Below, piece after piece: positions 30,084 through 64,000 of a DNA stretch of 64,000 nt. Every line of letters begins with the position of its first letter. Within the stretch, counting starts at the first letter, position 1. The stretch is taken from the NCBI RefSeq assembly GCF_035083965.1, contig NC_089726.1:7941501-8005500 (forward strand), read 5' to 3'. The notes under the pieces were generated by a model, which saw nothing but the letters and a program-made list of their open reading frames with translations, was not told where the DNA came from and did not search any database. Source of the stretch: Branchiostoma lanceolatum. Lineage: Eukaryota; Chordata; Leptocardii; Amphioxiformes; Branchiostomatidae. The position numbers and the translations under genes are program-made.

Positions 30084-32123
30084 CTAGTCACAGTCTGATC
30101 CGTCCCGCTCGTCTTCTTCCTCCTCCAGTGCTGCCAGGTCCCGGCAGTACCAACCAACGCGGCTCTTCTGGGTTTCAAGGAAGCTGTGGCCGAATAAGGC
30201 AAAGGGCAGAGGCGTCTGCTGTGCGGAACTGTAGTGGCCAGAGGTCGATGAGTGGTCTCCAAATTCGTAGTTGCTAATGGTATCCACTATGTCCTGTGAA
30301 TTCGTGAACCAGTAGTTAACGTTTTGGTTCTCACGTCGCGTGCGAAGGAAGTTCTCCCTGAAATCTTGTTTATTACCCTCATCTAGGCTTAGAGTCTCCT
30401 TTTCGGCATCAAAGATGTACTGATAGATGCGACACCCTGATGATAGTCCATATCCGATACGAATATAAAGTCTGTCATCGACAGCAGTCGCAAGTGTGAC
30501 TGAGTCCTCCGCCCAAGAACTAGGAAGTAGTATATAGGCGTTCTTCCAACGTTTGGTTTTTACGTCAAACGCATGGACACAGAGGTGATCGATTTCCTTT
30601 GACATCCTACTCACCCTCCAGGCGATTGACCCAAATGCAACCTTGCAAATGAATGCAATCTTGTCTCCGAATGCTGTTACCATCATATTCGATGAAGTCA
30701 GGTGCTTCGGCGGTCCCGCATATATCTTTATCCAAGCCCCTTCTTCAGGATCATAGCAGTCCATGGTCACCAAAGACGTCGCCTCAGCGTCACTGCCGAC
30801 CAGGAAGAGTTTCCCGTCTACGATCACCGAGTGATGCCCTGCCCTGCCGCGAGGCATGTCGGGCAACTTCAGCCAAGTGTCTGAAGGGAAATCGTAGCGA
30901 AAGGCTTGGCTGGATTGGCTTTGGAAATGCTTCCTGCGAGGCCCCATCCAGGCAAGCCTTTCGGTACGATTTCCCTTCAGAGACCAGTGGGGTCGACCAC
31001 CTGTCACGTACAGGTGTCTCCCTGCACTTGCCACGCTCATGTAGCCGGAGACAGGCGTTGGTAGGTCAGTGACGTGGTAGTACTGCTGACTATCTGGATC
31101 TAAGCAAATTATGCTTCTTAAGGGCCCGGGCTTTGTCTCTGCATGGATGGGGAACGCGTCGTGAAGACCTGGCTCCTTAACTGCCATCCAACCACCAACA
31201 ATGATTGCCAGGTTGTCCGATGTCCCGCGTCTATTACGACTTGCCTCTTCTCCCCCTACCTTTGTACCGAGAAGGTGTTTCTCCTTGGCTGCTGTGATCT
31301 TTGCCAGACATTCTGCGGACTCTCGTATCACAGGGTGTGACTCGAGCTTCTGTAGCACGCTGACCTTCACGCAGGTTAGACGGATCTCTTGCAAAATCTG
31401 TAGGATTGCTGTTTGACGGTTCTCAGGGGCATGGTCGAGCCATCTTATGACAAAATTGACAACTTCCTCTTCATTCGTAACTTTCAGATCCTCGTCTTCG
31501 AGGAGATCTAAGAGTTCTTGCACCGAAAGGCTAAGGAACTCCCCATGTTGTATGGCGTCTGAGAAGTTTGACATTGCCATGTCTCTCGCGCTCTTCTTCA
31601 GGTCAGAAAGACCGTACATGCCGGCCAGGCGCATGACGCCCAGACAATTGGCCGGACAAAGGTTGTCTTGGATGAACTCACAGCAGTACTTCAGAATCTT
31701 GTCAAACTGTAGCATGTGTGCCGTCTGCAGGATGTCCTGGACATCGTCCTCGCTGATGTGGATTTCCCCGGTATACAGGAAGTCCAGAATCTTGCAGAAG
31801 CTGATGCCGTCAATTCCGTGAAGTTGTATGACCTTTGAACAACTTTCAGCGAGGTTGGAGGACAGCATGGCTTTAAAGTACGATATGGTTGCCAGCACAG
31901 GACGGTGACAAGGGAACTCACAATCTTCCACTTGTACCACCACATCAAGGAACTTCCCGGTCCTACGCTGGCTGGCGAGTTCAGCAAGAAGCTTGCGTCC
32001 CTGGGCGTCCTCCTTGAAGTGGCGGGAGTCGTCTTCCGTTGATTCAGAGTCATAGTCGTATGAACCCCAGTCCGACTCATCATAGTCATCGGCATCATCA
32101 AAATCAGACAGTCCCCCGAACAT
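30084..32123 (-). CDS. Intronless BTB-Kelch (KLHL-type) protein, 679 aa
   Basis: A single uninterrupted 2,040-bp frame. The N-terminus (1-40) is very acidic (DDADDYDESD), followed by a BTB domain (about 50-150, FLDVVVQVEDCEFPCHR, YFKAML, FLYTGE), a BACK domain (about 157-265, LCPANCLGVMRLA, FLSLSVQELLDLL, VVNFVIRWLDH) and degenerate Kelch repeats (about 305-560, IIVGGWMAV, LYVTGGR, LPDMPRGRAGHHSVIVDGKLFLVG). The tail ends in an acidic EEEEDERDGSDCD. KLHL proteins usually recruit CUL3 through BTB-BACK and bind substrates with Kelch; I infer that role here. The lack of introns suggests retroposition or lineage-specific expansion. Its leader (about 32124-32192) is homologous to that of the plus-strand copies. 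I do not assign a vertebrate orthologue. Confidence 0.9.
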   Translation of the reverse strand: MFGGLSDFDDADDYDESDWGSYDYDSESTEDDSRHFKEDAQGRKLLAELASQRRTGKFLDVVVQVEDCEFPCHRPVLATISYFKAMLSSNLAESCSKVIQLHGIDGISFCKILDFLYTGEIHISEDDVQDILQTAHMLQFDKILKYCCEFIQDNLCPANCLGVMRLAGMYGLSDLKKSARDMAMSNFSDAIQHGEFLSLSVQELLDLLEDEDLKVTNEEEVVNFVIRWLDHAPENRQTAILQILQEIRLTCVKVSVLQKLESHPVIRESAECLAKITAAKEKHLLGTKVGGEEASRNRRGTSDNLAIIVGGWMAVKEPGLHDAFPIHAETKPGPLRSIICLDPDSQQYYHVTDLPTPVSGYMSVASAGRHLYVTGGRPHWSLKGNRTERLAWMGPRRKHFQSQSSQAFRYDFPSDTWLKLPDMPRGRAGHHSVIVDGKLFLVGSDAEATSLVTMDCYDPEEGAWIKIYAGPPKHLTSSNMMVTAFGDKIAFICKVAFGSIAWRVSRMSKEIDHLCVHAFDVKTKRWKNAYILLPSSWAEDSVTLATAVDDRLYIRIGYGLSSGCRIYQYIFDAEKETLSLDEGNKQDFRENFLRTRRENQNVNYWFTNSQDIVDTISNYEFGDHSSTSGHYSSAQQTPLPFALFGHSFLETQKSRVGWYCRDLAALEEEEDERDGSDCD

Positions 32124-32293
32124 GGCGGGTGTTCACCTGGTGCTCTACTATGAAATCTGCTGGACAAAATGATACGGGGCAATGTCATCATGATTGTAGA
32201 GACACAATGATGCAACCCAAGTAAAGTACAAGGCGTATGGCATACATGTACGAGGGGTGATCAATACGTTATCAGCCTCACCCAGAAATGAGG

Positions 32294-36464: not shown

Positions 36465-36682
36465 TAGCCTGGATACCAGACCTTTCGCGCGATGCGATGA
36501 TAAGCCTTTTTGGCCGGGGAAGACCTGGTAGTAGGGATAGAGTTGGCACCCGGGCGCTTTGGCAGCCGAACCCTGATATCTATCGCAATTAGTGGGCCGT
36601 GTGCTGTCTGTGGCGGCGGCGCGAGTTGCTTCCCCGGCCGAAGGATTAGCGCCAAGAGCGCGGTGGTCTGGCACCCAGGCTA
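36465..36682. mobile_element. MITE inserted in KLHL coding sequence (copy 1)
   Basis: 218 bp with terminal inverted repeats TAGCCTGGATACCAGACC and (reverse-complemented right end) TAGCCTGGGTGCCAGACC, 16 of 18 matching. It is flanked by a perfect 9-bp duplication GTCAGTAAT (36456-36464 and 36683-36691). Element plus one duplication adds 227 bp, so the frame shifts, and the first element codon is TAG. The termini and 9-bp duplication match the 111-bp MITE at 32294-32404. No coding capacity. Confidence 0.92.
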
Positions 36683-37914
36683 GTCAGTAATGGGAGCGAC
36701 ATAGAAGTTATAGAATCATCTGAAGACGGCTCCCGCCTCATCAAAAACAACGGCCATGGACGCAAGCTTCTTGCTGAACTTGCCAACCAGCGTAGGACTG
36801 GGGATTTCCTCGATTTTGCGATACAAGTTGGGGGTAGGGAGTTCCCTTGTCACCGTGCTGTGCTGGCAACCACGCCGTACTTCAAAGCCATGCTGTCTTC
36901 CAACCTCGCTGAAAGTAGTTCAAAGGTCATACATCTGCACGGGACAGACTCCATCAGCTTCTCCAAGATCCTGGACTTCCTGTATACCGGGGAAATCCGC
37001 ATCAGCGAGGACGATGTCCAGGACATTCTGAAGACGGCACACATGCTACAGTTTGACAAGATTCTGAAGTACTGCCAGAAGTTCATTCAAGGCAACCTTT
37101 GCCCGTCCAACTGCCTGGACGTCATGCGCCTGGCAGACACGTATGGTCTTTCTGACCTGAAGAAGAGCGCAAGGAAAATGGTAGTGTCAAACTTCTCAGA
37201 TGCCAACCAGGACGAGGAGTTCCTTAGCCTTTCGGTGCAAGAACTCTTAGATCTACTTGAAGACGAGGATCTGAAAGTTACGAATGAAGAGGAAGTTGTC
37301 AATTTTGTCATAAGATGGCTCGACCATGCCCCTGAGAACCGTCAAACAGCAATCCTACAGATTTTGCAAGAGATCCGTCTAACCTGCGTGAAGGTTAGCG
37401 TGCTACAGAAGCTGGAGTCCCACCCTGTGATACGAGAGTCCGCAGAATGTCTGGCAAAGATCACAGCAGCCAGGGAGAAACACCTTCTCGGTGCAAAGGC
37501 AGAGGGAGAAGAAGCAAGTCGTACTAGACGCGGGATATCGGACAGCCTGGCAATCATTGTTGGCGGTTGGATGGCAGTTAAGAAGCCACAAGTCGAGCCT
37601 GTACAGCTGACGCCAGGGCCCCCACTGCAAAACATGATTTGCTTAGATCCAGATAGTCAGCAGTACTACCACATTGCTAACCTACCAACGCCTGTCTCCG
37701 GCTACATGAGCGTGGCAAGTGCAGGGAGACACCTGTACGTGACTGGTGGACGTGTCCATCCTCTGTTCGGCCATGGTCCTCACACTCCCCCATCCAAGCA
37801 GGCCTTTCGCTACGATTTCCCTTCAGACACTTGGCTGAAGTTGCCCGACATGCCTCGCGGCAGGGCAGGGCATCACTCGGTTATCGTTGACGGGAAACTC
37901 TTCGTGGTTGGCAG

Positions 37915-38028
37915 TGACGCTGAGACGACGTCTTTGGTGACCAAGGACTGCTGTGATCCTGAAGAAGACGACGACGCTGAGGAGACGACGTCTTTAGTGA
38001 CCATGGACTGCTATGATCCTGAAGAAGC
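37915..38028 (+). repeat. 57-bp in-frame internal duplication in KLHL copies
   Basis: Two adjacent units start GACGCTGAG at 37915 and 37972. They encode ETTSLVTKDCCDPEED and then EETTSLVTMDCYDPEEA. The intact minus-strand paralogue has a single such unit (EATSLVTMDCYDPEEG). The extra 19 residues fall in a Kelch region. The same is present at 40623-40736. Confidence 0.85.
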
Positions 38029-38715
38029 GGCTTGGATAAAGATACATGAGTCACTACCAATAAACGTTTCATCGAAGTGGACGGTAACAGCCTTCGGAGC
38101 CAAGGTTGCAATCATCGAAGCGTTAGACTGGGGAATCGAAGAATATTTCTGTGTCTATAACCCCGGTATATTGTAAGCTAGCCTAGAATACACCCCTACC
38201 CAAACGATTAAGGTAGGTCAGTTGAGACAGCCTAGATGACGTACTTTTTGATTGGATTTCGAGGTCTGCAGCTAATGGATGACAAGAGAGATTATTGAAA
38301 AAACAATTAGATGCATCTATCAGCGCATTTCTTTTGATCTTTATCAATATCAAACGCACTACTTTATACCGGCGAACTACTATGTAAATACTGTATTCTG
38401 TAACCTTAAGCGTTCCATGTTGTTTGCTTGAACCTTTATAACCTGCAACAGGGAATACTCATAAACCCGTGCGCACCTCGTGAAATTTGTACCGGAAGTT
38501 TAAAAGTAATTTATAACGTTATCTGATTTCGATCGGTTCTTTTCCTAGGTATATAATGCACTGAGACGTCAATGAACTGTTGACTAACATTAATACATAC
38601 ACTGCTGTTCTCTTAGGACATTAGGACTGAACACCGGAAGTTTGCAGGTTGGTGAGTTAGCGCTAGTATTAAAAGTCATGTTGACCATAATGGACTTTGG
38701 TACCAAATGGTAACG

Positions 38716-39079: not shown

Positions 39080-41130
39080 ATGTTCGTACATCCAGACGCC
39101 CTACGGGACTACGACGACCGTGATGAGTCAGACGGCGGGGATTCATCATTGGACTGTGACTCCGTCAGTAATTAGCCTGGATACCAGACCTTTCGCGCGA
39201 TGCGATGATAAGCCTTTTTGGCCGGGGAAGACCTGGTAGTAGGGATAGAGTTGGCACCCGGGCGCTTTGGCAGCCGAACCCTGATATCTATCGCAATTAG
39301 TGGGCCGTGTGCTGTCTGTGGCGGCGGCGCGAGTTGCTTCCCCGGCCGAAGGATTAGCGCCAAGAGCGCGGTGGTCTGGCACCCAGGCTAGTCAGTAATG
39401 GGAGCGACATAGAAGTTATAGAATCATCTGAAGACGGCTCCCGCCTCATCAAAAACAACGGCCATGGACGCAAGCTTCTTGCTGAACTTGCCAACCAGCG
39501 TAGGACTGGGGATTTCCTCGATTTTGCGATACAAGTTGGGGGTAGGGAGTTCCCTTGTCACCGTGCTGTGCTGGCAACCACGCCGTACTTCAAAGCCATG
39601 CTGTCTTCCAACCTCGCTGAAAGTAGTTCAAAGGTCATACATCTGCACGGGACAGACTCCATCAGCTTCTCCAAGATCCTGGACTTCCTGTATACCGGGG
39701 AAATCCGCATCAGCGAGGACGATGTCCAGGACATTCTGAAGACGGCACACATGCTACAGTTTGACAAGATTCTGAAGTACTGCCAGAAGTTCATTCAAGG
39801 CAACCTTTGCCCGTCCAACTGCCTGGACGTCATGCGCCTGGCAGACACGTATGGTCTTTCTGACCTGAAGAAGAGCGCAAGGAAAATGGTAGTGTCAAAC
39901 TTCTCAGATGCCAACCAGGACGAGGAGTTCCTTAGCCTTTCGGTGCAAGAACTCTTAGATCTACTTGAAGACGAGGATCTGAAAGTTACGAATGAAGAGG
40001 AAGTTGTCAATTTTGTCATAAGATGGCTCGACCATGCCCCTGAGAACCGTCAAACAGCAATCCTACAGATTTTGCAAGAGATCCGTCTAACCTGCGTGAA
40101 GGTTAGCGTGCTACAGAAGCTGGAGTCCCACCCTGTGATACGAGAGTCCGCAGAATGTCTGGCAAAGATCACAGCAGCCAGGGAGAAACACCTTCTCGGT
40201 GCAAAGGCAGAGGGAGAAGAAGCAAGTCGTACTAGACGCGGGATATCGGACAGCCTGGCAATCATTGTTGGCGGTTGGATGGCAGTTAAGAAGCCACAAG
40301 TCGAGCCTGTACAGCTGACGCCAGGGCCCCCACTGCAAAACATGATTTGCTTAGATCCAGATAGTCAGCAGTACTACCACATTGCTAACCTACCAACGCC
40401 TGTCTCCGGCTACATGAGCGTGGCAAGTGCAGGGAGACACCTGTACGTGACTGGTGGACGTGTCCATCCTCTGTTCGGCCATGGTCCTCACACTCCCCCA
40501 TCCAAGCAGGCCTTTCGCTACGATTTCCCTTCAGACACTTGGCTGAAGTTGCCCGACATGCCTCGCGGCAGGGCAGGGCATCACTCGGTTATCGTTGACG
40601 GGAAACTCTTCGTGGTTGGCAGTGACGCTGAGACGACGTCTTTGGTGACCAAGGACTGCTGTGATCCTGAAGAAGACGACGACGCTGAGGAGACGACGTC
40701 TTTAGTGACCATGGACTGCTATGATCCTGAAGAAGCGGCTTGGATAAAGATACATGAGTCACTACCAATAAACGTTTCATCGAAGTGGACGGTAACAGCC
40801 TTCGGAGCCAAGGTTGCAATCATCGAAGCGTTAGACTGGGGAATCGAAGAATATTTCTGTGTCCATGCGTTTGATGTGAAAACCAAAGGTTGCTGGAAGA
40901 ACGCCTATATGCCTCTGGGGAGCTCTTTGGGGGAGGACGCGGTCATTCTTGCGACTGCTATCAATGACAAGCGGTTTTACATCCGAATCGGGCTGTCACC
41001 GACTGGTATCGAGGATTGCGTTGAACAATATATTTTCGATGTCGAAGAGGAGATCTTAATTGATATGGGCGATGAAGAAGATTTCAGCCACAAGTCACAG
41101 CCCAAAATGCACCCTCAACACAACTTCTAA
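39080..41130 (+). pseudogene. BTB-Kelch paralogue, copy 2: MITE-disrupted, native 3' end
   Basis: Same lesion as copy 1: ATG at 39080, in-frame TAG at 39173 from the MITE, frame resuming at 39391. Unlike copy 1 it keeps its own 3' end, so the frame from just after the MITE runs through BTB, BACK and Kelch to the stop at 41128-41130. The part from the GTG at 39568 alone is 520 codons. The C-terminus is shortened: after ...DMGDEEDFS it reads SHKSQPKMHPQHNF, sequence that is 3' UTR in the intact paralogue. An alternative is a living gene if the MITE is spliced out (donor C|GTGATG at 39119/39120, acceptor CTAG|TC at 39391/39392 restores the frame), but the acceptor has a poor pyrimidine tract. 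RNA data would decide. Confidence 0.75.
39173..39390. mobile_element. MITE inserted in KLHL coding sequence (copy 2)
   Basis: Duplicate of the 36465-36682 element, with its GTCAGTAAT flanks at 39164-39172 and 39391-39399. Its presence in both copies dates the insertion before the tandem duplication. Confidence 0.92.
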
Positions 41131-43141: not shown

Positions 43142-46100
43142 TTAACCTTCTAACCCCAGCCTGTCCAGTAACCAGTCCAGCGCTGCCAGCTTCTGATTGG
43201 CCTCGTCCAGGGCGCTGTAGGTCTGCACGTTGCTGGTGATGTGGTAGCGGATGTCATCCACCACGGGGATGGAGTCGGTCTCCTGTCGCGCCTCGACCTG
43301 GGCCGCGTCCTCTCGTACCAGATCTGCAAAGTCCTCCATCTCCACAAGCTGAAAAGAGGATTAATGTTAAAGTTAAAGTCCTCTCGTGCCACTTGGATCA
43401 CCCTAAGGTTGGTGCACAATTCAGATTCGCAGCCCTTGGGCCACACAACTTTTTGCACGTCACTACGGCAGGGGGCTAGTCTGCTGGTAGTGATGTGTGT
43501 GTTTAAATTCCATACTCTTCCCCAGATGCTGCGAGTTTTAAGCAGAGAAAGCAGTAGTACCATTTTTACAGTCTTTGGTATGACCCGGCCGGGAATCAAA
43601 CTCATGACCTACCGTGTACAAGGCAAACACTCTAGCTTTTCATTGTGAATCTCATTACCTGAATGTCTAGCCTTCATTGACATATTAGACTTTTGACAAA
43701 AACTTCAAGCTTGAGTAAACTTTTTATTGTGTAGGCTGACTAAGTTTGCCAACAGCTTTTGTTTTCTGACTTGCTCACCTTATCCAAGACCTTGGCCATG
43801 TACTCTGTGCACTGGTCCTCGAGTCGCGGCAGCTCAAACAGTCGCGACGCTCGTACGACCGGGATGACGTTGTTTTCGTCCAAGTGTTGACTGATGACGT
43901 TGGCACACTGCCTCTTCAGGCCAGGTAACAGGTACATGTCTGCCACTCGTAACACATCAAACACATGGTCGGGAGACACCTGGAAATAAATGTACAAAAT
44001 TTTAGTACACAATATTTGGAATAAAGTACAGGCATATGATTGTGTTAGTGTTGAATCAATTACATGTGGGGGGATGTTCCTGTGTCTCAACTGGTAGCAG
44101 TCTAACAATATTGGGCTACTGGTTCCAATGAGTTGGTAACTGGGAGAGCCCGGTTCAAGTCCCAGGGTCAGGACATCTAGGTTGGGGCTGCACCATCTTT
44201 CAGAAAGGACTTAAACTGGGGGTCCCGTGCTCAAGCACATTAAAGGGGAAGGGCTAGCAACCCCTCCCTGTAAAAACATACCCTTCCACTGAAACAGCAA
44301 GGAAACTTGCTCCTCTATGTGCCACCAGGTACTATATTAGGGTCTGAACAAACGGATGAACGAAATAATGAAAACCTACTACCTATTATCCATGCCCTCA
44401 CCTCTGTACTGTCCTGATAGATGTAGTACAGGACCCTGCTGAAGACATACGCACTGACATCATGGAGTTCCACTACAGGGATGGGAGCCTCTGACTCTGA
44501 GTCCTCCTTGGGTCTCTCACTGAAATGGTCAATCAGAAGGGCCTTGAAGTAATCACTGCGACCACAGAGAAAGACCTGGAACAAAGGGGGGAATGGTCAA
44601 GTCATCACAAGCAACACAACTTTGTGCAATGTTGTTATGAAATTGATTGAAGTAAAATACATGTAGTAATTTTGTCTTTAAGATTGTTAGTTCTTGTTTA
44701 TCAACCCTCCTCACAACCATGAACCAAGTCTTCTTACATACAGAAAAAAAGTAAATCTTGTTGATTGTTAGTATTTGTTTTAATGGTGACCTCTTAACTC
44801 CAGTGAACATTTGTTCAGTAATGTACCCTGTGCATCCACTGCAAACTTGTGGCAAACACCTTCTTTTCTCCCTACTGCAAAATTAAGTTTCTGCAAATTT
44901 TACAATATATGAAGCATTTAAAACATGGAAAGAATTTGGTAGCAACTTCCCATACCTTGTGGCAGTAAAACCTGTGGGATTCCACCTCAAAGCAGACGTC
45001 GTCATATGCAGTTTTGTCTTCGTCCTCAGGGCTGCAGAAAAACGGTAAAACTCCGGAGGTGACCTGCAAAGGAAAGTTTAGATTTCAGCAAACATCTGAC
45101 AATCATAGAAGAATGGGAGAGGAATGAAACCAATAACAACACGCACAATACAAAAGTAACTCAAGCTACTGGATAGATTTTGTAAATGGTCTGTTGTATC
45201 AGTCAGAATTTTCTCACTCACTCACGAAAAGTAGTGGATGCTATCTTAAACATCTGTCCATTCACAAAATCTATCTATCAGTAGTTGCCGGTCTAACTTT
45301 TGTATTGTGTATCTTCTTACCCGAATCTCTAACCTTCATTGATGCAAGAAGAATATCAAAAGTGATTATTTTGTTCTGAACATACCCAGTTGCCCAGCTC
45401 TGGAGGCATGCAGCTTTCCGCAAGCCTGCCAAAGTCTTCGCACAGCTCCTGGTTATACAGACCCTCATGTTCCACACTGATCATGGTCACATGGGTACCA
45501 GGCTTGGTGGACACTGGGAAAAGAAAGAACAAGACTTGTAACACAGCCAATCAAAATGCTAAGAGACTTTTGACGCATGCTTGGTGTGCAAAATTCGAAT
45601 CCCAGCCTTTGTTGCTCAACCAACTTACAACCAAAAGGGTTACAGTTCTTAAGCGGATGTAAAGCCAAAGGTCCGATTCTTGAGGACAGCCACACCTCAA
45701 GCTAGTCAAAGAACCCACCATACTGATATATATAAGGGTAGGGGTCCAACCTGTTGTGAATGGATCAACTGTGTCAGTCTTCTCTTATGCAGCTTGCATT
45801 TAGAGCTGGGCAAAACTGGTGTGTTATGTCTTAAGGTGGTTTACTGGCTATGCAATACAAACAAAGCTACTGTTGATGGTACATACCAAAGTCATAAACT
45901 GCTTTTAGCCTCTTCTCAAGTTCATCAATGAGCTTTCCAAGTCGACACTGCTTGGCCAGTCTTATACAGTCCTCAACATTGTAGACATCAGTGTCAAGTC
46001 GACCTACAGTGAGTCATAATACATAGAGTCAGATTTAACTCGACAAACACCCTTGTAACAAGGATCTCTGACTTGTCTTATATATCAATTTGCATCTAAC

Positions 46101-49055
46101 AATTGCAGGTAATGATTCAAGTAGAAAAAATCTTTTCTAAAAACTATCCACAGAATTTTATCATTGAAATATTTCCACCTCTTCTACTGGTACCAATTCG
46201 TCCGCTTAAAAAAGCACTCTCAACATTTGAAAATTACACAACACCCCAAGAAACAATTGATATACATTTGTACTAGAATCCCTTAACAGTTTTGCCTACC
46301 TGTGTATAGATACTGCAGAACTGATCTGAAGGCGTTGGGGTTCACCAGACTGTGTTTGATCTGAACATGAGCCTTGTTCTTCCACTTGGTCTGCAGCATC
46401 TCTGCAAAGTAGGCTGACCGTGCGCTCAGGATGCACTTGTGGGCCGTGAACACCTCATCGTGGACATCAAACTCCACATCCTCATAGTTTCCCTGCTCTA
46501 AAAGCCTAGAAGATGTGCAACAATTAAAATCAACATAATTCCCTCTTGGGGTAGAGCCACATGATCATGAAGAACTCCAAGCTGAATATCAGGATCAAAT
46601 CTAAGCCTTTTGCCTTTTCCATTTCATTTTATAGCAATGTCATATGTAAATACAATTATTGTATACATATAGATCAGCATACTGTACACAGTTAAAACTG
46701 CCCAAGAAGACCTTTTGGGAGACAAATGAGTTCCATGTGCACAGGTGGTCACTATAGACAGGATTCTTGATTGACGCTTGTGTCAATGGGAAAGGACCAC
46801 CAAAAAGTGGTCACATTGGCCAGGTTTTCAGGTGGTCACTTGTACAGGTTTGACTATATGTAAACATTTCATTATTCTATCCAATGATTCAAGTAATGCA
46901 ACAAGTGCATGTCCTTTGACTTGCAGACCATTCCATATTCCTACATGTGTCATGTTTTACTGGGCATGATCATGAGACTATTTCTGACATTGTTTTACTA
47001 CTGAATGGTCACAATGATGCTTACTTTCGTAGGAACTCATCGTAGTGGTCCCTTCGTAATGTCTGTGAGGTGACCTGTTTGTAGTTCTTCAGCATGTTCC
47101 TGATCCTGTCGTTCAGTGCACCGTACAGGCAGCGCTCCCCATCGAAGGTGTTGGCTTCACACCGTGCCCCTGGTTGGATACAAGGTCGGAAACAAAACAA
47201 ACTTCACTTACATGTGTACAAAAAACGTAATGCTCCCTCCCTCTACCACTGATACACTATGGGCGCATGATGACATCAGGAGTATGCAAGGGAATTATCC
47301 CACAAGACTGGCAGCACTAAACACATGCGTGAACTTACGAGACCTCACACCGGAGGTCATATGTGCGAGAACACAAGGACTGTATCATCACTTACCTAAT
47401 AGTGCCATACACATTGTATGACACTGATTTAGTAGATATACAAGAATTTTCCTACGTGGAGCCTGTTTGGAAAATGACAATGAGAGCTGTTGTTCTCATT
47501 GTCCTTTTTCTTTTATTTGTCCAATTTGATACTTTATTAATGTTTCAGTTATACGTGTAACCTTAGTACTCTTACCTTTGTCTAGCAGATATTCTACTAG
47601 ATCTTCATGGCCACATAGACAAGCATAGTACCTGCATGGTAAAAAAAAAAGACATAGACATAGTATGGCAAACTGCAATGCAACAAAAAAAGTAAATGCC
47701 TCTTTCATGCAAAATACTGAGGGTCTCTTGTAACACATAACTCACACCTAAAAATGATTCCAAGGTAATTCTAAGACTTACAATTGAAATATGATCTGGG
47801 AACAACTGCAAACAGATATAGTAAGTAGCAAGCAGGACTAGTCCAATACCAAAAATACAGTTACATTTTTAGCTGACTGCCTGCATAAAAAAATTGCTAC
47901 ATTTATTTTTGGTGTTGGAACAAAATTCAGCTATCTACTGTATGTTACGGATCAAAACAGATATCCATTCATCACAATATCAGGCAGGCCTGGCACAGTT
48001 CAGACATGACTTACAGAGGTGTACTGTCCCAGCGGTCTCTCACGTTCAGATCCACGTCCTTCTGTTCCACCAGGTGCCTGTAAAGTGTATAATTTGTACA
48101 TATCGGTATTTTATTTGCTCTAGAGTTGAAATCTTGTTTATATAAATACATCATATTGATCACTATGATACGATACTTTAAATGTTGTGGACAGTTTTAA
48201 CTTTATTTAGAAACATAATTCATCACAACATACAAACACTTGGGGACAGCAAACATGAATATTAAACGCTTCATTTATAAAAACATCATATGAACATAAA
48301 CGGGTATCATCTACTACCCAACTATTATACAGGCTGACTTGAGACATATTTGTTAAAAATATAGAGGATTCTATGTGATGTTATCTTACGCCAATTGCTA
48401 GAGTTTGTAGTACCACTTCATAATCACTGATTTATCCCGACAACTAAGTGGCAGTTACCATTCCTGTTACACTGGCATGTCCCTGAGATGTTGCTTACGA
48501 TGTGTGAACTTTGTGATGAACTGGACTGAACTGAACCCAGTGGGGTTATGATTCTCCCTGACCTAAGCCTTTTATAAACAACCTCTGCCCTGATAGATTT
48601 TATGTATGTTACTTTCATAGATACAGATCAACGGTGCAAGAAAACCTTAGGCGTCACGTCTACTTTTGCATTAAGAAAAATATCCAACGTCAAGCACTAT
48701 CTATATAACCTCCTTGATCTAGCTAAGCTACTAACAATCATACAAAATTTATGTTTGAAAGGTTTCTTATTCTGCTCTGGAGATTTCTCTGGAATGATGT
48801 CCTCGAACGCTATGTGCAACGGAAGGTCGCCTGGCTAAGATCCCATTATAGCGTATGTTTGTCACTTGACACCAGAGGCTGCTACAGCTAAATACACACA
48901 CCAAGTGTAGTTGCCTATGAGGCTATGACGAAACGCCCCCCTCCCACTTGGAACACTGCAGAAGCAGACGATCAAGGCGTACACCGCCAGAAAACTTACT
49001 TGACACGCGAAACATCTCCCTTTCTACAGGCAAGGAACAGTTCATGAAGATCCAT
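43142..49055 (-). CDS. ABTB1: Ankyrin repeat and BTB domain-containing protein 1
   Basis: Eleven exons with consistent phases: 49055..49000, 48077..48015, 47631..47576, 47169..47025, 46505..46300, 46003..45887, 45513..45386, 45063..44956, 44575..44402, 43979..43779 and 43348..43142. They sum to 1,461 nt (486 aa; from memory human is 478). Order: N-terminal ankyrin repeats (MDLHELFLACRKGD, RDRWDSTPLYYACLCGHEDL), first BTB (about 110-180, FTAHKCILSARSAYFAEML, LQYLYTGR), linker, second BTB (about 270-360, FYCHKVFLCGRSDYFKALL) and a C-terminal region (VADMYLLPGLKRQC, EDQCTEYMAKV, ARQETDSIPVVDDI). In mammals ABTB1/BPOZ is a cytoplasmic CUL3-type adaptor linked to PTEN growth suppression and eEF1A turnover; I infer a similar role. 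It is intact, and diverges from the glycosyltransferase gene across 747 bp. Introns hold a SINE, a second SINE-like element and a decayed repeat. Confidence 0.96.
43365..43650 (-). mobile_element. Probable tRNA-derived SINE in ABTB1 last intron
   Basis: On the minus strand the head reads CTAGAGTGTTTGCC...GTAGGTCATGAGTTTGATTCCC, with a B-box-like GAGTTTGATTCCCG about 45 bp in, followed by an unrelated body. It is a different family from the 44071-44336 SINE. The right boundary is approximate. Confidence 0.5.
44071..44336 (+). mobile_element. tRNA-derived SINE in an ABTB1 intron
   Basis: Head GTCTCAACTGGTAGCAG (A-box-like) and CCCGGTTCAAGTCCC (B-box), then a body with CATCTTTCAGAAAGG, GGGGGTCCCGTGC and AAGGGGAAGGGCTAGCAACC, and a tail CAAGGAAACTTGCT. 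It lies in the intron between ABTB1 exons 44575..44402 and 43979..43779, opposite to the gene's direction. Confidence 0.8.
46685..46862. repeat. GACCACC/GGTGGTCAC repeat in an ABTB1 intron
   Basis: Begins CAGTTAAAACTGCCCAAG and ends GTGGTCACTTGTACAGG followed by TTTGACTATA, a degenerate inverted pairing as in the 1228-1318 element. Between them are GGTGGTCACTATAGACAGG and AAAGTGGTCACATTGGCC. Confidence 0.55.
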
Positions 49056-49802: not shown

Positions 49803-52800
49803 ATGGCTTACCGCACCACTGTGCTCCTAGCCTCTACTGTAGCCGCTGTTACAATACCTGGCTACTCAAACTACAGTAGGAAGAGATCACTGAAGTCCAG
49901 ACGACAGCGGGTGATAGTGTTCACCCGGTACCCCTCACCCGGAACTACCAAATCTAGACTCGCCCCGGCGCTGGGACAACAGGGGGCTGCTCTGGCACAG
50001 CTGCACATGGTGATGGTCTTTCTGTTCAGTTTCAGTATTTTTTTATGTTTGACAATTTCACAAAGAATGTGAAGTTGTGAAACCATAAACAAGCTACTGT
50101 ACTCGTACTGATAACTGCTGAGTCATTAGAAAACATTTGATTTGATACAATAACTGTTATGATATACACTTCCTGGGTACATATTTTTGGTACGCCTCAG
50201 GGGCGAGCTATCATTACAACAGCCCCGACTTACCAGTTTTGTGTATTGGTTCTTTAATTAGTTTAGGCAGAGATCATATGTCATCATATGTCATCATATC
50301 AACATACCTACAAAAAATCTTATAATTAGGTCTATTGATAGATTTCTACTTTCTGATTGATACAGATACTGGCCAGGTTTTGCCTTCTTTCAGCCATCTT
50401 TTATCAAACGTAACATGATCTGTGGCAAATGCCACGTTTGTTTATAATCTCTAACGTTATCGGTATATTCTATGTTACAGACAAACGCCATCCTGCATGA
50501 AGCAGGTAAACTTCAACAGAGGAACCCAGAGAACCTGTCAGTAGAGGTGCGCTACCATGGAGGTACCGAGGACGACATGCGGTACTGGCTGGGGAGGAGA
50601 GGAGACATCACCTGTTGGTGGAGGGTGCAGGATGGGGAGGACCTGGGACACAAAATGGCCAATGCTTTTATGGATGCTTTTAGAGAGGGCACTGAAAATG
50701 TGGTGTTGGTATGTACTGGGTTTACACAGAAGAATGGCTACGACTAATGGTTTTCATATTTTATGTATGTTGAATTGTGTTTTTACTCAATGTTATTGCT
50801 TTATATTTATATAGATGTTTTTGAGGAAAGAGCTTCTCTAAGCACTTTGCTTAATTGCCTGATCCTCAATAAATATATGTGAATAATAAAGAAGATGGTT
50901 TTCATAGTTCTTTAAATGGTAATAAAGTTATCATATTATACACCTTACCGTTTCTTAGCTCATCTGCATGTATCATTGTCGAAAAGAGTCATAACAATAG
51001 TGTCCTGAATGCTGTGAACCTTATCCCCAGTAAGACAATACACTCCTGTTTGAAATTGCAGAAATGCACCAAGTTGCTCCAAATGTAACACAATCCTTTG
51101 TATACCAGTTTTCCTTTTCTGTGTTTAACATTACAGGTAGGGAGTGACATTCCTGCCATCACTGCAGACGTTTTAGAGGAGGCTCTTCAGATTCTGCAGT
51201 CAGCTCAGGAAGAAGACATCTGTGTTTTAGGGCCTGCCATAGATGGAGGATACTATCTAGTCGGTCTGAACAGACGAACAAACAGTAGTGTTATAGGTAA
51301 AAATTTCACTGAAATGGTACATGAATAGATAAAGGAAGAAACCTTTGAAAAACATACTGTACAATCTATTCTAGAAAATAGGGTGAATGATACATGTAAG
51401 GAGAGTAAACAGATTAATCTGTATCTGTATAGCTGGTATATCTTCAATTCAGTGTAAACCAGCTAATGTCGTAACACACCTTCTTCCTACATTTGATAAC
51501 ATTTGAACTTCCAAGAAATTGATGAGGACTTGCCAGTGTGTTTTCAAGGTCTTTATAACAATATCACATCCTTTTCATTTTTCGCTTCTGGTATTTTTTC
51601 CCCTATAATCCCAAATGCCTCATATTCTCAGGTTAATAACTTCATCTTCTGTTGTTACGAATGTTGTACAGGGCAGCTGTTCCAGGGGATGAGGTGGGGG
51701 ACAGAACAGGTGCTCCAGCAGCAGCTGCAGGTGGGGGAACGGCTGGGAGTCAGGTGCAACCTGCTGTCTCGAAGGTTACAGGATGTGGTGAGTAACTGTG
51801 ATGTAAGATACAGACCCTGGACTCTGGTGTAAGATACAGACAGTGTTAGATACAGACAGTAGAGGCTCTAATAGCAGGTGTTTCAGTAGCAGATGTAGGG
51901 GGAACAGCTGGGGTTGCCACCTGTGGCCTCATAAGTTACAAGATGTGGTGAGTAACTGTGATGTAAGATACAGACCCTGGTGTAAGATACTGATGGTGTT
52001 CCAGTGGCAGTTGCTGGTGGGAAAGCAGCTGGGAGTTAGGTGCCACCTGTTGCCCCGCAAACTTGAGGATGTAGTGAGTAGCTTATGTGTTGTAAGAGAC
52101 ATACAACAGGTGGTTCCACAGCAGGTGCAGATGGTAAAATTGCTAGGAGTCAGGTTGACTTAGGGTTACTGGATGAGGGCGTGTGTGATGTAAGGGAGAC
52201 AGCTGTATATTTTTCCAACCATATCGGTGCGGTCCCGGTGGTCAGCAATCCACCTTACGGTGAGTGGTGTAATTCACAGCATTACCAGTACAGGAGCTTA
52301 CAGCAAACCAGACAAAGTGGAGAGAGTTGAAGAAGAACTGATTGCAGCTGCAGGGTGTCCAGACTACTGCAGCAGCAGAACACAGTGGACTACTACTACA
52401 GTACAGCCAATGCTCAAATAATGCTAGTTGTAAGACAAATGCCACAGGATGCTGAGGAAATGAAGAACAATTGGCACAGGCCACTCAAGTAATTGAAACC
52501 TCAATAAGTAGACATAAGTATAAGTAAGACCAACTCTGTGTGTTACATTGAATCATATCTGACCACCAAAATCTGTTTCAGGACACAGCTGATGACCTTG
52601 GTGAGTTTGAGCGGAGGACAGGCATCCCTCGTCAGGAACTGTGCAGCCCAAAGTGGAGCGTCATCATTCCTGTACTGAATGAGGCAGAGAATATCAAAGC
52701 TGTGATAGATAATGCACTACAGGTAATGTTTTCCTGATAAAGAATTATCAAATTGTTAACATGGTTCTGGTGTACTTGTGTAGAACTTTGATTAATGGAT

Positions 52801-55800
52801 TTTATTTGTGGTTTGAAATTAAATAGCGAGCTTGAAAACCTTGTGTAAAGCTATTGTTTTGTTTTGTTTCATTGATTTGAAATTGTAATGAAACAATATG
52901 ACAGTCACTGTAGTCAGTGATTATGCTGAAGACCTGTGCTATTTTACAGGAGTTCCCACACCAACATCAGATAGAAGTAGTGGTGAGTGATGGAGGCAGC
53001 ACAGATGGTACTCCTGACGTTGTCAGAGATATTGCCAAATCCTATCCTCAGGGCACAGTCAAGCTTGTCTCTGGACCTAATGGTAATAATGTTGATATTA
53101 CGTACACATGAGGGCATTTTGCCAATCAAGTCATTTTATGGTCAGAGCATCCCTAACTTTTTTCAAATTTTTTGTTGTCTGAGGAAGATTCTTCTTTGAT
53201 AGCCAATGCTAGAAGCTTTGATTTACACTACTTTATTACTAAGTACATGTAGCTGAATTGAAGTGATTGTGAAATGGTTACTTTCTTCTTGGCCAACTAA
53301 TATTTTACCTAAACCCTGTCACTAGGTAGAGGAGTGCAATTGAACACTGGTTCCCAGCATGCATCAGGAGACTACCTCCTCTTCCTGCACGCTGACACAA
53401 GGCTGCCATCGTCATGGCAACAGGATGCATACAAGACGCTTTGCAGACCAGGTGTGGCGGTCGGAGCCTTCCCTTTTGGACTGGATGTGATAAAAGATTC
53501 AAATCATTCCAAGTACAAATATCCTCCTCTTGCAGATATAGTTAAGAATGCATTTCAGTACCAAGGCTATTGATAGTACATTATAGTATATGATGGAAGA
53601 AGGCTCTTCAGCACTAAGGTATGGTGAGAAACATCATAGTGCAAGGTGGAAGAATGGGAAGGAACATTATAGTGTAAGAAGAGAATGCATTTCAGTACCA
53701 AGGCTAGGGTGGTACATTGAATATATTCTCTTCTTCTTGCAGATGTTTTGAAGAATGCATTTCAGTACCAAGGCTATTGGTAGTACATTGTAGAATATGA
53801 TGGAGGAAGGCTATTCAGCACTAAGGTATGGGAAGAAACATTATAGTGCAAGGTGGAAGAATGCATTTCAGTACCAAGGCTAGGGCAGTACTATAGTATG
53901 TGTATATGATAATGATGGAAGGACTTCAGCACAAAGGTCAGGGAAGGTGCATTATAGTTATATATGAAGGTGGTACATTACAACTGAAATATGAAATGGA
54001 TGGCATTTACAAGTACCATGACATCTTTGGACATCTTTGGACTTGTATCTGATATATTTGTATCTGATATACATTTTGTATTTGTTATTTCAGGTCAGAT
54101 TCCTGGTGGTTCAGGGCACAGATGAGACTTCTGCAGTGGGGAACCAACTTGAGAGCTTCATTCTTTGGTGAGTCCCACCTGCCACTAAATAACAGTAGAT
54201 GATATATTTCTCCATCACTGGTCTATCATTTGATGCATACATTTGACAAAGTAGGTACATGCCTGTCATTGATATCACTCTTATTGGACTAGCTATGCCA
54301 AAATTTGTATTAATGATTTTTTTCACAGCTTCACCCTGTTCCATCCTCACCTTGAAGGTTGGGGACTGTGGTCTCTTCCAGCACAAGCTTTAACCACAAT
54401 CAATACATTTATCTCAGAGCTACCATATGGAGACCAGGCACTGTTTATGACTAAGAGACAGTTCCATGCAGTGGGAGGCTTCCCAGAGTTTCCTCTGCTG
54501 GAGGATGTAGAGTTGGTGAGGAGGCTGAAGCAGCACGGCCACGTGGGCATCGCCGAGGGGAAGGGTGTTGTCACCTCCGCTCGCAGGTGGAGGAAACATG
54601 GATATCTCAAGGTAGGCGGGATCTAACGTTTCTCTCTCTATCTCTCTATCCAATTTAACGTCTTTTGTTCCCCATCATCTGGGGGTTAGACCTACTTGCA
54701 CATGGATGGGAAAGCCCCAGAACTCCTCATCAAGTGCAAGTCCTATTTTGTAGCAAGAGTTTTTACGGCTGGATGCCCTTCCTAACGCCAACCCAAACCC
54801 TACTGCTGGGCTTAGGACATGGAAAATGTGTGTTAAGTGCCTGTCCCAAGGGCACAACGTCTGGGTGCATGTCCGGACATGTCTGGGTACTCCACTGGGG
54901 ATTGAACCTGGGTCTTATTGGTTCATAGCCGGATGCTCTGCCACTGTGCTACACAGACGTTTCCTAGGTGTAAACATTGTAAGTCGGATGTCCCTGTAGC
55001 TCAACTGGTAGCAGCCTCACAGTTAGCTCCTGGTTCCAAGAGGAGGAGCTTTGAGCAGGTTAAAAGAGAAGGGCTAGCAACCCCTCCCTGTAAAAATACA
55101 CTGCTAAAAACAGCAAGGAAGGAAACTTGCTGACCTATGGGCCACTTGGCATTACAAGGTAAATAACAGCATTCTTGAAAATATGGCAGTAAAGTATCTG
55201 GACTGTACATAATTGAAAACATTTCATGGAAATTCAGTATACATGTATGGTGGGCAAAATGACAGTTCATACACATTTAATGTAAATCTCTCTTTTTTTA
55301 CCATTTGAATTGTCAATGTAAGAGCAACCAATGACTTTTTGTTACAAAACTTTCCAGTGCATTTTCCATTTTAACAGGCATACACCCAACATTTACATGA
55401 CATCACCCTGTGACATACTCCTTTGTCACAGTCCCCACACCCTTGTCTCACTTATGTAGATTTAACGAGCCAAAAGCGTAAGCACCATTTTGTCCCTAGC
55501 ATTACAACTGCCTTTACAATGACATCATCCGCAATGTCTTACATGGACAAAGCCATAAATCACACATCATTATGTACACACTTTTATATTCCCAACCTCC
55601 AAGACATAGTCATAATTACAGACATAACTTTATCCTTTGACAGAAACCTACATTTGGGAATTAATCATCTTCTGCAAAGGACAATATTTTGAAGGTTGTC
55701 ATTGCTACATGTAGTTACGAAGCACATTAAGCAAAGTCCTTGAAACAACACATCTTTATCGTTGGTCTCCTGTGGTGTACAACGAGATGTTAACACGTTA

Positions 55801-56357
55801 GGTGTGTCTTATGATGATGTTATGTGCAACCTGTTATTAAGAGCTGCTGTATCAGCAACTCTAAGGCATGGGACGTCTGCTGTTTTTGTGAAACTGACCA
55901 ACGCCTGCATGAATTGAAACCAGGGCTGTCTCTAGGACCTGTCCCTTTGTCCCGGGATAGAAATCTACCAGTTGGGAGGGACAAAGATTTCACCACGTCC
56001 ATCCAAAGATCTGAACTTAGTGACATGAAACTGATGAAAATGTATCTTTCGTAACCTTAAAATGACAGATTTGGCAACAAAAATTTAACAACATGGGCTC
56101 CCAAACAATGAGTGGGACGGAAAAAAATCTAAAGCTGGAGACAGCCCTGACTGATACCATATATTATAATAGTTTGCAACACAATTGGTCGTGTTATAAT
56201 TTGCATCTTCACAGACACCTGCCTCATGTTGTGTTTTGTTTCTCACATCCAGGTGACATCGATGAACACGTTCATCCTACTGGCATACGAGATGGGGGTT
56301 CGACCCGACACATTAGCGGAGTGGTACTATGGCAAAAGACTGCCAGACAAAGAATGA
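49803..56357 (+). CDS. Fused DUF2064 (TIGR04282-like) + GT2 (TIGR04283-like) glycosyltransferase
   Basis: Ten exons: 49803..50009, 50481..50708, 51137..51296, 51672..51787, 52582..52722, 52950..53082, 53326..53512, 54094..54167, 54418..54611 and 56253..56357. They total 1,545 nt in frame (514 aa). The ATG has an ideal GCCACCATGG context. A hydrophobic stretch (about 5-20) with following basic residues (26-35) could be a membrane anchor or targeting peptide. Domain 1 (about 36-243, DUF2064): RYPSPGTTKSRLAPALG, GSDIPAI at 147-153, LGPAIDGGYYLVGL at 176-189 and DVDTADDL. Domain 2 (about 262-514, GT-A GT2): SVIIPVLNEAEN, VVSDGGSTDGT, LHADTRLP with Asp352, LPYGDQALF, EDVELVRRL and a typical C-terminus (LAEWYYGKRL). 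In bacteria the halves are usually separate neighbouring genes, named for arsenosugar biosynthesis from gene context. The substrate here is unknown. The exon 7 donor (AA|GTACAA) is the least certain boundary. Confidence 0.9.
51709..52205 (+). repeat. Decayed tandem copies of glycosyltransferase exon 4
   Basis: The 3' part of exon 4 with its donor (from GGTGCTCCAGCAGCAGCTG at 51709 to GATGTGGTGAGTAACTGTG) is followed by three degenerate copies starting near 51877, 51995 and 52108. Copies 2 and 3 even keep a donor-like GATGTGGTGAGTAA or GATGTAGTGAGTAG. Stops in the exon 4 frame (for example CAGTAGCAG in copy 2) make them unusable as coding exons. Confidence 0.75.
53540..53900. repeat. Local tandem repeats in glycosyltransferase intron 7
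   Basis: GAATGCATTTCAGTACCAAG occurs at about 53546, 53683, 53753 and 53858. A larger unit of about 207 bp (including AAGGCTCTTCAGCACTAAGG and GTGCAAGGTGGAAGAATG) is present twice. The copies follow immediately after the proposed exon 7 donor. Confidence 0.75.
54680..54962 (-). mobile_element. Second-family tRNA-derived SINE, reverse orientation
   Basis: On the minus strand it begins TGTGTAGCACAGTGGCAGAG (A-box), has CCCAGGTTCAATCCCC (B-box), and a body with TGGCGTTAGGAAGGGCATCC followed by AGCCGTAAAA. That last motif is known from LINE-derived tails of several animal SINEs. It lies in the last intron of the glycosyltransferase gene. Confidence 0.65.
54983..55158 (+). mobile_element. tRNA-derived SINE, internally deleted
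   Basis: Same family as 44071-44336: CCCTGTAGCTCAACTGGTAG, then directly AGAAGGGCTAGCAACC and GGAAACTTGCTGACC. The B-box and middle body are missing. It sits 20 bp after the oppositely oriented SINE, in the same intron. Confidence 0.75.
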
Positions 56358-62886: not shown

Positions 62887-64000
62887 ATGCCCAGTCCCAC
62901 CACAGACAGACTGGACTTCCACCAGCCCTTCCAGGCAGCAGACATCCTGAAGGCGCTAAATGACATGCGCGGATTCAAGGTGCTGACTGACGTCATCCTG
63001 ACGGTAGAAGATGAGGAGTTCCACTGCCATCGGTAAGTGGAAGACGTCAACGAACTTTTAAGTCGCAAGATTTATGTACGGTCAAATCTGTCTAAGACGA
63101 TCATCCATGGAACCGTTAAAATCTCGTCTATGTGGACAGGTGGTCAATAGGGAAAATTATGTAAGGGACCATCAGAAACTCATATGGGCCAGATGATCCT
63201 TATGAGAGGTAGTCACTAAAAACAAATGTTACATTTTACTGGACTGTCTGCAGTAACCTTCTCACTAAAGCTCAAAGTCCATACCTTACAGCAGGAGTTC
63301 CCCCCAAATCCTCAACCATAGTTATATAGTTACCTTAAAAACTGGATGAAACATAATCAACCGAGTAAAACAAAAATAAACACAGATATACATATTTTGT
63401 GATATACTAGTATATTGTACATCTTACAATAGTTTTTAATCCCGATAATTGAGAAATTGAGTTCATACGGCTTTTAAAAAAGTGCAATTTTAATTGTGAT
63501 CAGACATTTTCTCATATTTATTTCACCAAGTCTTTAAATCCCGTGTTGTTCGCAGAGCGGTCCTGGCGGCCAGCAGTCCCTACTTCACGGCCATGTTCGC
63601 GGGGAACCTGCGGGAGAGCCGGGCAGAACAGATCAAGATGGAAGGCATCCCCGCGGACACCATGCAGCTTCATCTCGACTACGCCTACACCGGTAGAGTC
63701 ACCATCACACGCGACAACGTCTTTCAACTCTTCGAAACCTCCGACTTGCTGCAGGTCTTGCCGGTCAAAGACGCTTGCCTGACCTTCTTAGAGAGGATTC
63801 TAGACGTCTCGAACTGTATAGAGATTCGCAAGCTAGCCGAGATCCATTCGTGCGACTCGCTGTTCCGCAAGGCGAGAGACTTGGCCCGAAGTCGGTTCTC
63901 CAAAGTTATCAAAACGGAGGAATTCCTGCAGCTTCCCAAACAGTACATCGTGGACTATCTGTCCGACGACGAGCTGAACACGGAAAACGAGGAAGAGATC
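62887..64000 (+). CDS. KLHL family BTB-Kelch protein, 5' part
   Basis: Two coding exons, 62887..63032 (donor CG|GTAAGT) and 63556 to beyond 64000 (acceptor CGCAG|A), give 197 residues before the edge. The BTB domain (about 25-135) has VLTDVILTVEDEEFHCHR, AVLAASSPYFTAMFAGNL and YAYTGRVTI. The start of BACK follows (DACLTFLERILDVSNCIEI, FLQLPKQYIVDYLSDDEL). By memory the wording is closest to the KLHL6/KLHL24/KLHL35 group, but I do not assign an orthologue. Kelch repeats should follow outside the window. Unlike the 30-41 kb KLHLs, this gene has an intron inside the BTB, right after the CHR motif, so it belongs to a different KLHL lineage. The predicted role is CUL3 substrate adaptor. Confidence 0.88.

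What the first reader, a model, noticed from the sequence alone, without database searches (positions are those of the whole stretch)
49803..56357. Animal gene fusing two bacterial-type glycosyltransferases (DUF2064 + GT2)
Seen: ten exons in perfect phase join a DUF2064-type domain (KSRLAP, GSDxP and DGGYYL signatures) to a GT2 domain (VIIPVLNE, SDGGSTDGT, LHADT, YGDQ). Known: in bacteria these correspond to the TIGR04282 and TIGR04283 families, usually separate adjacent genes named for arsenosugar biosynthesis from genome context. Inference: an ancient horizontal transfer of a two-gene bacterial operon or a bacterial fusion, later intronised, giving lancelets one enzyme that may make or modify an unusual sugar conjugate, possibly arsenosugars, which are common in marine animals. 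The hydrophobic N-terminus suggests a membrane or organelle location. No animal function for this fusion is known to me.
Basis: partly seen in the sequence, partly recalled or inferred. Interest (0 to 1): 0.85.

Follow-up and report, generated by a model that had tools for sequence, protein, structure and literature searches.

The report
Bacterial-type two-enzyme gene in animals
A lancelet gene joins two bacterial-type enzymes, one that probably activates a small molecule and one that transfers a sugar, and the same fused gene is found across many marine invertebrates, where its job is unknown and may involve arsenic-containing sugars.

Summary
Ten exons (49803-56357, GT-AG introns) encode an intact 514-aa protein matching TIGR04282 and TIGR04283 above NCBI's cut-offs. 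Full-length relatives sit on chromosome-scale lancelet contigs. It is not lancelet-specific: named relatives come from seven animal phyla (lancelets, echinoderms, hemichordates, molluscs, brachiopod, nemertean, calcareous sponge). The 32 eukaryote-type rows tested form one clade (100/100) among bacterial proteins with the same fusion in the same order, so the fusion most likely arose in bacteria; the donor is unresolved. The 'glycosyltransferase' label of the DUF2064 half is probably wrong: it has the CofC/FbiD nucleotidyltransferase fold and keeps three metal-binding aspartates. Best reading: a bifunctional enzyme that makes a nucleotide-activated (arseno)sugar-type intermediate and transfers it, with a hydrophobic N-terminus in 19 of 23 animal-type rows examined. 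In 118 genomes of one bacterial phylum 33 of 36 ArsS genomes carry the family, but 15 of 48 carriers lack ArsS, and a non-exhaustive search showed no animal ArsS. The arsenic role in animals is open.

The parts
49803..50009 (+). exon 1: hydrophobic/basic N-terminus and KSR motif (K50 codon starts at 49950)
   Evidence: N-terminus compared
50481..50708 (+). exon 2: DUF2064 domain
51137..51296 (+). exon 3: DUF2064 domain, GSDIP (D149 codon 51146-51148) and DGGYYL (D181 codon 51242-51244)
   Evidence: D149 invariant in the 62 rows
51672..51787 (+). exon 4: end of DUF2064 domain, D236 codon 51782-51784
52582..52722 (+). exon 5: D238 codon 52582-52584, linker, start of GT2 domain (VIIPVLNE)
52950..53082 (+). 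exon 6: GT2 domain, SDGGSTDGT (D298 codon 52989-52991)
53326..53512 (+). exon 7: GT2 domain, LHADT (D352 codon 53394-53396)
54094..54167 (+). exon 8: GT2 domain
54418..54611 (+). exon 9: GT2 domain, YGDQ, LLEDV (E444-D445 codons 54501-54506), TSARRW
56253..56357 (+). exon 10: C-terminus and stop

Best explanation
A bifunctional enzyme. SHOWN: the N-terminal half belongs to TIGR04282/DUF2064, is predicted with the fold of CofC/FbiD nucleotidyltransferases and keeps their three metal-binding aspartates (D149, D236, D238); the C-terminal half is a GT2 glycosyltransferase domain of TIGR04283 with its conserved acidic motifs intact; the fusion exists in bacteria and the eukaryote-type copies tested form one clade. 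INFERRED: domain 1 joins a nucleotide to a phosphorylated sugar-like molecule (NTP + X-phosphate to NDP-X + PPi) and domain 2 passes X to an acceptor, the fusion coupling two successive steps. INFERRED, weaker: X is a ribosyl unit of the arsenosugar type (5-deoxy-5-dimethylarsinoyl-ribose, downstream of ArsM and ArsS in bacteria) and the acceptor glycerol or a glycerol-headed lipid. In most animal members examined an N-terminal hydrophobic helix followed by basic residues probably holds the catalytic part on the cytosolic side of a membrane. Origin: one transfer of an already fused bacterial gene before the sampled animal phyla diverged, followed by intron gain and mostly vertical descent.
Against: I know of no demonstrated activity for TIGR04282 or TIGR04283 (recalled; my searches found none); their 'arsenosugar' name appears to rest on context. 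15 of 48 TIGR04282 genomes and 4 of 11 genomes with the fusion lack ArsS in the 118-genome sample; of the 16 genomes with fetched fused loci 4 lack it, and of a further 30 genomes 11 lack it. No animal ArsS among the 120 rows listed. The CofC score is far below its cut-off (28.7 vs 105). No nucleoside phosphorylase among 16 neighbour proteins scanned. The window protein's hydrophobic stretch is modest (mean hydropathy 1.36). In the domain-1 tree the protist-like rows fall among the animals, and a single animal clade was not recovered, though not rejected (p 0.41). Domain 1 was not folded and searched alone, so its fold matches rest on few rows.
Confidence: 0.5

Rival explanations
1. Same nucleotidyltransferase plus glycosyltransferase mechanism, but with no arsenic: in animals it makes and attaches an ordinary or unusual sugar or glycerol-phosphate unit to a lipid or other acceptor, having been recruited from the bacterial pathway.
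For: 15 of 48 TIGR04282 genomes have no ArsS; a third bacterial form adds an AglJ/dolichyl-phosphate-type GT2 domain (P0023, L014), suggesting lipid-linked sugar chemistry; most animal copies examined have a hydrophobic N-terminus; no animal ArsS found.
Against: ArsS genomes nearly always carry TIGR04282 (33 of 36) and ArsS is physically fused to TIGR04283 in two proteins. Animals could obtain the arsenical precursor by other means.
Confidence: 0.33
2. The protein is two glycosyltransferases in tandem, as the NCBI names say, making a disaccharide-type conjugate.
For: NCBI names both families glycosyltransferases; both halves have a nucleotide-sugar-binding type of fold.
Confidence: 0.12
3. The gene is not a horizontal acquisition near the base of animals: it was in an earlier eukaryote ancestor and was lost widely, or was transferred several times.
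For: Three protist-like sequences (P0048, P0140 from EukProt, P0141) join the eukaryote clade and fall among animals in the domain-1 tree; the capped listings cannot show weaker eukaryote hits.
Against: The clade sits within bacterial fusions on a branch of 0.59 with 100/100 support; no eukaryote-type row fell elsewhere in the trees made.
Confidence: 0.15
4. Bacterial contamination or a chance string of open frames.
For: The domains are bacterial families.
Against: Nine GT-AG introns, chromosome-scale lancelet contigs with full-length relatives, animal-type genes (protein kinase, BTB-Kelch) elsewhere in the window.
Confidence: 0.005

Closest known systems
Bacterial DUF2064-GT2 fusion proteins (JGI name: rSAM/selenodomain-associated transferase 2/1; about 450 aa), e.g. 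P0022, P0027, P0059
   Same: Same two domains, same order, 42-43% identity over 92-93% of the window protein; same conserved residues.
   Different: The two checked for it (P0027, P0059) have no N-terminal hydrophobic segment; bacterial, in part near ArsS/ArsM-like genes.
Bacterial three-domain form GT2 + DUF2064 + GT2 (about 675 aa), e.g. P0023, L014
   Same: Contains the same two domains in the same order.
   Different: Extra N-terminal GT2 resembling AglJ/dolichyl-phosphate hexose transferases, below those models' cut-offs.
CofC/FbiD 2-phospho-L-lactate / PEP / 3-PG guanylyltransferase
   Different: Score 28.7 against cut-off 105; different substrate expected; here fused to a GT2.
Animal homologues listed as 'uncharacterized protein', 'hypothetical protein' or 'DPM1' (B. 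floridae, Mytilus, Crassostrea, Lytechinus, Sycon and others)
   Same: Orthologues or paralogues of this gene.
   Different: 'DPM1' in B. lanceolatum looks like a misannotation; these carry DUF2064 as well.

Membership tests
TIGR04283 (GT2 of the arsenosugar cluster) | score over NCBI's curated cut-off (182 bits) | tested here: met
   217.9 bits, residues 263-505
TIGR04282 (DUF2064, glyco_like_cofC) | score over NCBI's curated cut-off (134 bits) | tested here: met
   171.7 bits, residues 37-243
Pfam DUF2064 and GT2 | gathering scores | tested here: met
   PF09837 97.1 vs 25.8; PF00535 85.2 vs 23.3
Bacterial DUF2064-GT2 fusion family | common descent with the bacterial fusions in both halves | tested here: met
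   full-length tree and both single-domain quick trees; donor group unresolved
CofC (TIGR03552) | score over cut-off 105 bits | tested here: not met
   28.7 bits
CofC-like nucleotidyltransferase mechanism | three aspartates holding two Mg2+ | tested here: met
   D149, D236, D238 invariant in the 62 rows, kept in the window, aligned to CofC D116/D191/D193 by my register count; metal binding itself not tested
Arsenosugar biosynthesis pathway | ArsS partner in the same genome | tested here: inconclusive
   no lancelet genome held; none of 120 listed ArsS hits has an animal name, but the list was filled by bacterial or unnamed proteins
Arsenosugar biosynthesis pathway | arsenosugar made by the enzyme | not testable with these tools
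   needs an assay

The most novel reading that the evidence does not exclude
Lancelets, molluscs, echinoderms and sponges carry their own ancient, bacterial-derived, membrane-anchored enzyme that builds arsenosugars or arsenosugar lipids, so part of the arsenosugar in marine animals, including deep-sea vent mussels, is made by the animal and not only taken from algae or bacteria.
Probability: 0.22. Interest if true: 0.9.

Novelty: new variant of a known kind. Interest (0 to 1): 0.62.

Why it matters
It places a two-step sugar-activating and sugar-transferring enzyme of bacterial descent in many marine invertebrates, where the named copies seen are called uncharacterized, hypothetical or a misfitting name. 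It gives a testable candidate for the unresolved origin of arsenosugars in marine animals (one review notes that vent mussels contain them and suggests a bacterial origin; PMC11228943, passage), and it gives TIGR04282 a concrete mechanism to test instead of the label 'glycosyltransferase'.

Tried and rejected
Own-genome search was impossible: no genome is held for the window. The ArsS search used a chimeric query to raise the lower length limit and so thin out bacterial proteins; the 120 listed rows (of 1184 matches) were still bacterial by name or unnamed, so it neither shows nor excludes animal ArsS. Three unnamed 'src' rows were read and look bacterial to me. Donor: a clade of eukaryotes plus four cyanobacterial loci gave p 0.047, but that grouping left out three unnamed rows nested with them; with all seven it is not rejected (p 0.28), so cyanobacterial ancestry is open. 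Animals without the three protist-like rows as one clade are not rejected (p 0.41). I looked in bacterial neighbourhoods for a nucleoside phosphorylase that would supply a ribose-1-phosphate and saw none among 16 distinct neighbour proteins (9 besides the fusion with NCBIfam, ArsS among them; 10 with Pfam; three L014 genes in both; four had no match in the library or libraries tried), which weakens the exact substrate proposal. Absence from vertebrates, arthropods, nematodes, cnidarians or annelids is not claimed: no such name is among the 120 rows listed by either search. Literature searches listed no paper on this animal gene by title or abstract; I saw capped listings (for instance 40 of 270, 15 of 23,017, 20 of 2,224), and the library holds open-licence papers only. 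Passages searched in PMC12608789, PMC7539508 and PMC13188914 gave nothing on animal genes of this family.

Full report
1. The gene. Ten exons between 49803 and 56357 on the + strand, all introns GT-AG, splice in phase to 1545 nt and a 514-aa protein with no internal stop. The protein passes NCBI's curated cut-offs for TIGR04283 (217.9 vs 182 bits, residues 263-505) and TIGR04282 (171.7 vs 134, residues 37-243) and Pfam's for DUF2064 and GT2. B. floridae LOC118415510 has the same length and 438 of 514 identical residues; a B. lanceolatum protein model that starts at the second exon differs at 20 of 446 positions, so the window is probably a Branchiostoma close to B. lanceolatum (inference). B. 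floridae has a second copy, LOC118418306, 66% identical over 91% and on another contig.

2. Who has it. A search with the window protein and one with a profile of 14 relatives (the best 120 rows shown of 2994 and 5477, from about 8000 scored candidates each) list named proteins from lancelets, echinoderms (Diadema, Lytechinus, Amphiura, Asterias, Patiria, Acanthaster, Apostichopus, Anneissia), hemichordates (Ptychodera, Saccoglossus, Glandiceps), molluscs (for instance Mytilus, Crassostrea, Mercenaria, Dreissena, Haliotis, Patella, Liolophura, Solemya, Potamilus), a brachiopod (Lingula), a nemertean (Tubulanus) and a calcareous sponge (Sycon). The rest of the list is mostly bacterial or unnamed, with three partial animal models (P0147, P0154, P0171) among them. 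P0048, P0140 (EukProt) and P0141 are unnamed and look like protist members. No vertebrate, arthropod, nematode, cnidarian or annelid name appears in the rows listed, which is not proof of absence.

3. Origin. Many bacteria have the same fusion in the same order; 16 of the 80 loci kept from one genome scan are fused, from cyanobacteria, planctomycetes, Thermodesulfobacteriota, Synergistota and others, and further loci have the two genes side by side in either order. In a maximum-likelihood tree of 88 rows the 32 eukaryote-type rows (27 being the window or named animals, 5 unnamed) form one clade (100/100, branch 0.59); inside it lancelets (100/100), ambulacrarians (99/96) and lophotrochozoans (98/95) follow animal phylogeny, while the deepest forks are unresolved. 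Quick trees of each domain, with 13 eukaryote-type rows and stand-alone bacterial copies, also give the eukaryote clade (SH-aLRT 97 and 100), but in the domain-1 tree the protist-like rows fall beside Mytilus. A single animal clade is not recovered and not rejected (p 0.41); several rows, Sycon, Mytilus and Patella among them, have an odd letter make-up. One acquisition of an already fused gene, followed by mostly vertical descent and intron gain, is the simplest reading. The donor is not resolved: grouping with cyanobacteria is not rejected (p 0.28).

5. Membrane. Of 23 animal-type rows examined (of about 45 in hand, window included), 19 have an N-terminal 17-residue stretch with mean hydropathy of at least 1.3, a threshold set after seeing the values, and in 18 of these 19 at least three net positive charges follow it; the two bacterial rows examined lack it. 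The four without are P0004, Lingula, Tubulanus and a truncated Patella model. The window's own stretch is modest (1.36), and a mitochondrial signal is not excluded. P0048 has a hydrophobic start without net charge after it; P0140 and P0141 instead end in a hydrophobic stretch (sequences, judged by eye). A catalytic part facing the cytosol is inferred from the charges.

6. The arsenic link. In bacteria it is real but not strict. L014 has an ArsM-like gene (below the cut-offs of the ArsM models), DUF3179, ArsS, DUF547, a protein without family match that looks membrane-bound, and the three-domain fusion in a row. Proteins fusing TIGR04283 to ArsS (P0289, P0291) and an ArsM-like domain to ArsS (P0259) exist. 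ArsS over its cut-off is found in 25 of 32 genomes of a first set (12 of the 16 with the fusion) and in 19 of 30 of a second set, against 1 of 14 control genomes; 16 of the 80 loci have ArsS inside the fetched flanks. In a draw of 118 genomes of one phylum, 36 have ArsS, 48 TIGR04282 and 47 TIGR04283 (43 of these over the cut-off); 33 of the 36 ArsS genomes carry TIGR04282 against 15 of the other 82 (Fisher p 2e-14, not corrected for kinship; leaving out G005, through which the phylum was chosen, 5e-14), and ArsS lies within 10 kb of TIGR04282 in 11 of the 33. But 15 of 48 TIGR04282 genomes, and 4 of the 11 in which I read both families in one frame, have no ArsS. Hence the pair also works without ArsS, or with an unseen partner, or some genomes are incomplete. 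For animals nothing was found: the ArsS search listed 120 rows without an animal name, which cannot exclude it. A review states that arsenosugars occur in deep-sea vent mussels and suggests bacterial origin (PMC11228943, passage). That a radical SAM enzyme adenosylates arsenic in oxo-arsenosugar biosynthesis is from a review passage (PMC12159101).

7. Verdict. The two-step enzyme mechanism is likely; the arsenosugar role in animals is an open and testable possibility.

Noticed in passing
window 51788-52155: Intron 4 holds degenerate copies of the 3' part of exon 4 with its donor region (66 nt at 51915-51980, 88%; 89 nt at 51995-52083, 75%; 51 nt at 52105-52155, 76%): decayed exon duplicates or possible pseudo-exons.
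   Followed up: partly
window 36650-38173 and 39358-41127: Tandem BTB-BACK-Kelch reading frames 2.7 kb apart that begin with the same 60 residues, the first shorter (508 vs 590 aa); another lies at 30087-32132 on the - strand and BTB pieces at 44318-44596, 46286-46564 and 63500-64000: a local cluster of Kelch-like genes.
   Followed up: partly
window 13422-14519, - strand: A 366-aa open frame with a protein kinase domain.
   Followed up: no
window 53750-53958, intron 7: Diverged tandem repeat of a 106-bp unit (1.9 copies, 79% matches).
   Followed up: no
proteins P0003 and P0006: B. lanceolatum copies are named DPM1 in the source although they carry DUF2064 as well; likely misannotation.
   Followed up: no
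proteins P0246, P0287, P0289, P0291, P0259: ArsS is found with a metallophosphatase domain (PF12850), a CMD/AhpD domain (PF02627), TIGR04283 or an ArsM-like methyltransferase in one protein, pointing to further pathway partners.
   Followed up: partly
genomes G005, G009, G010, G011, G037, G088 and others: Several ArsS genes carry one in-frame TGA, as expected for selenocysteine.
   Followed up: no
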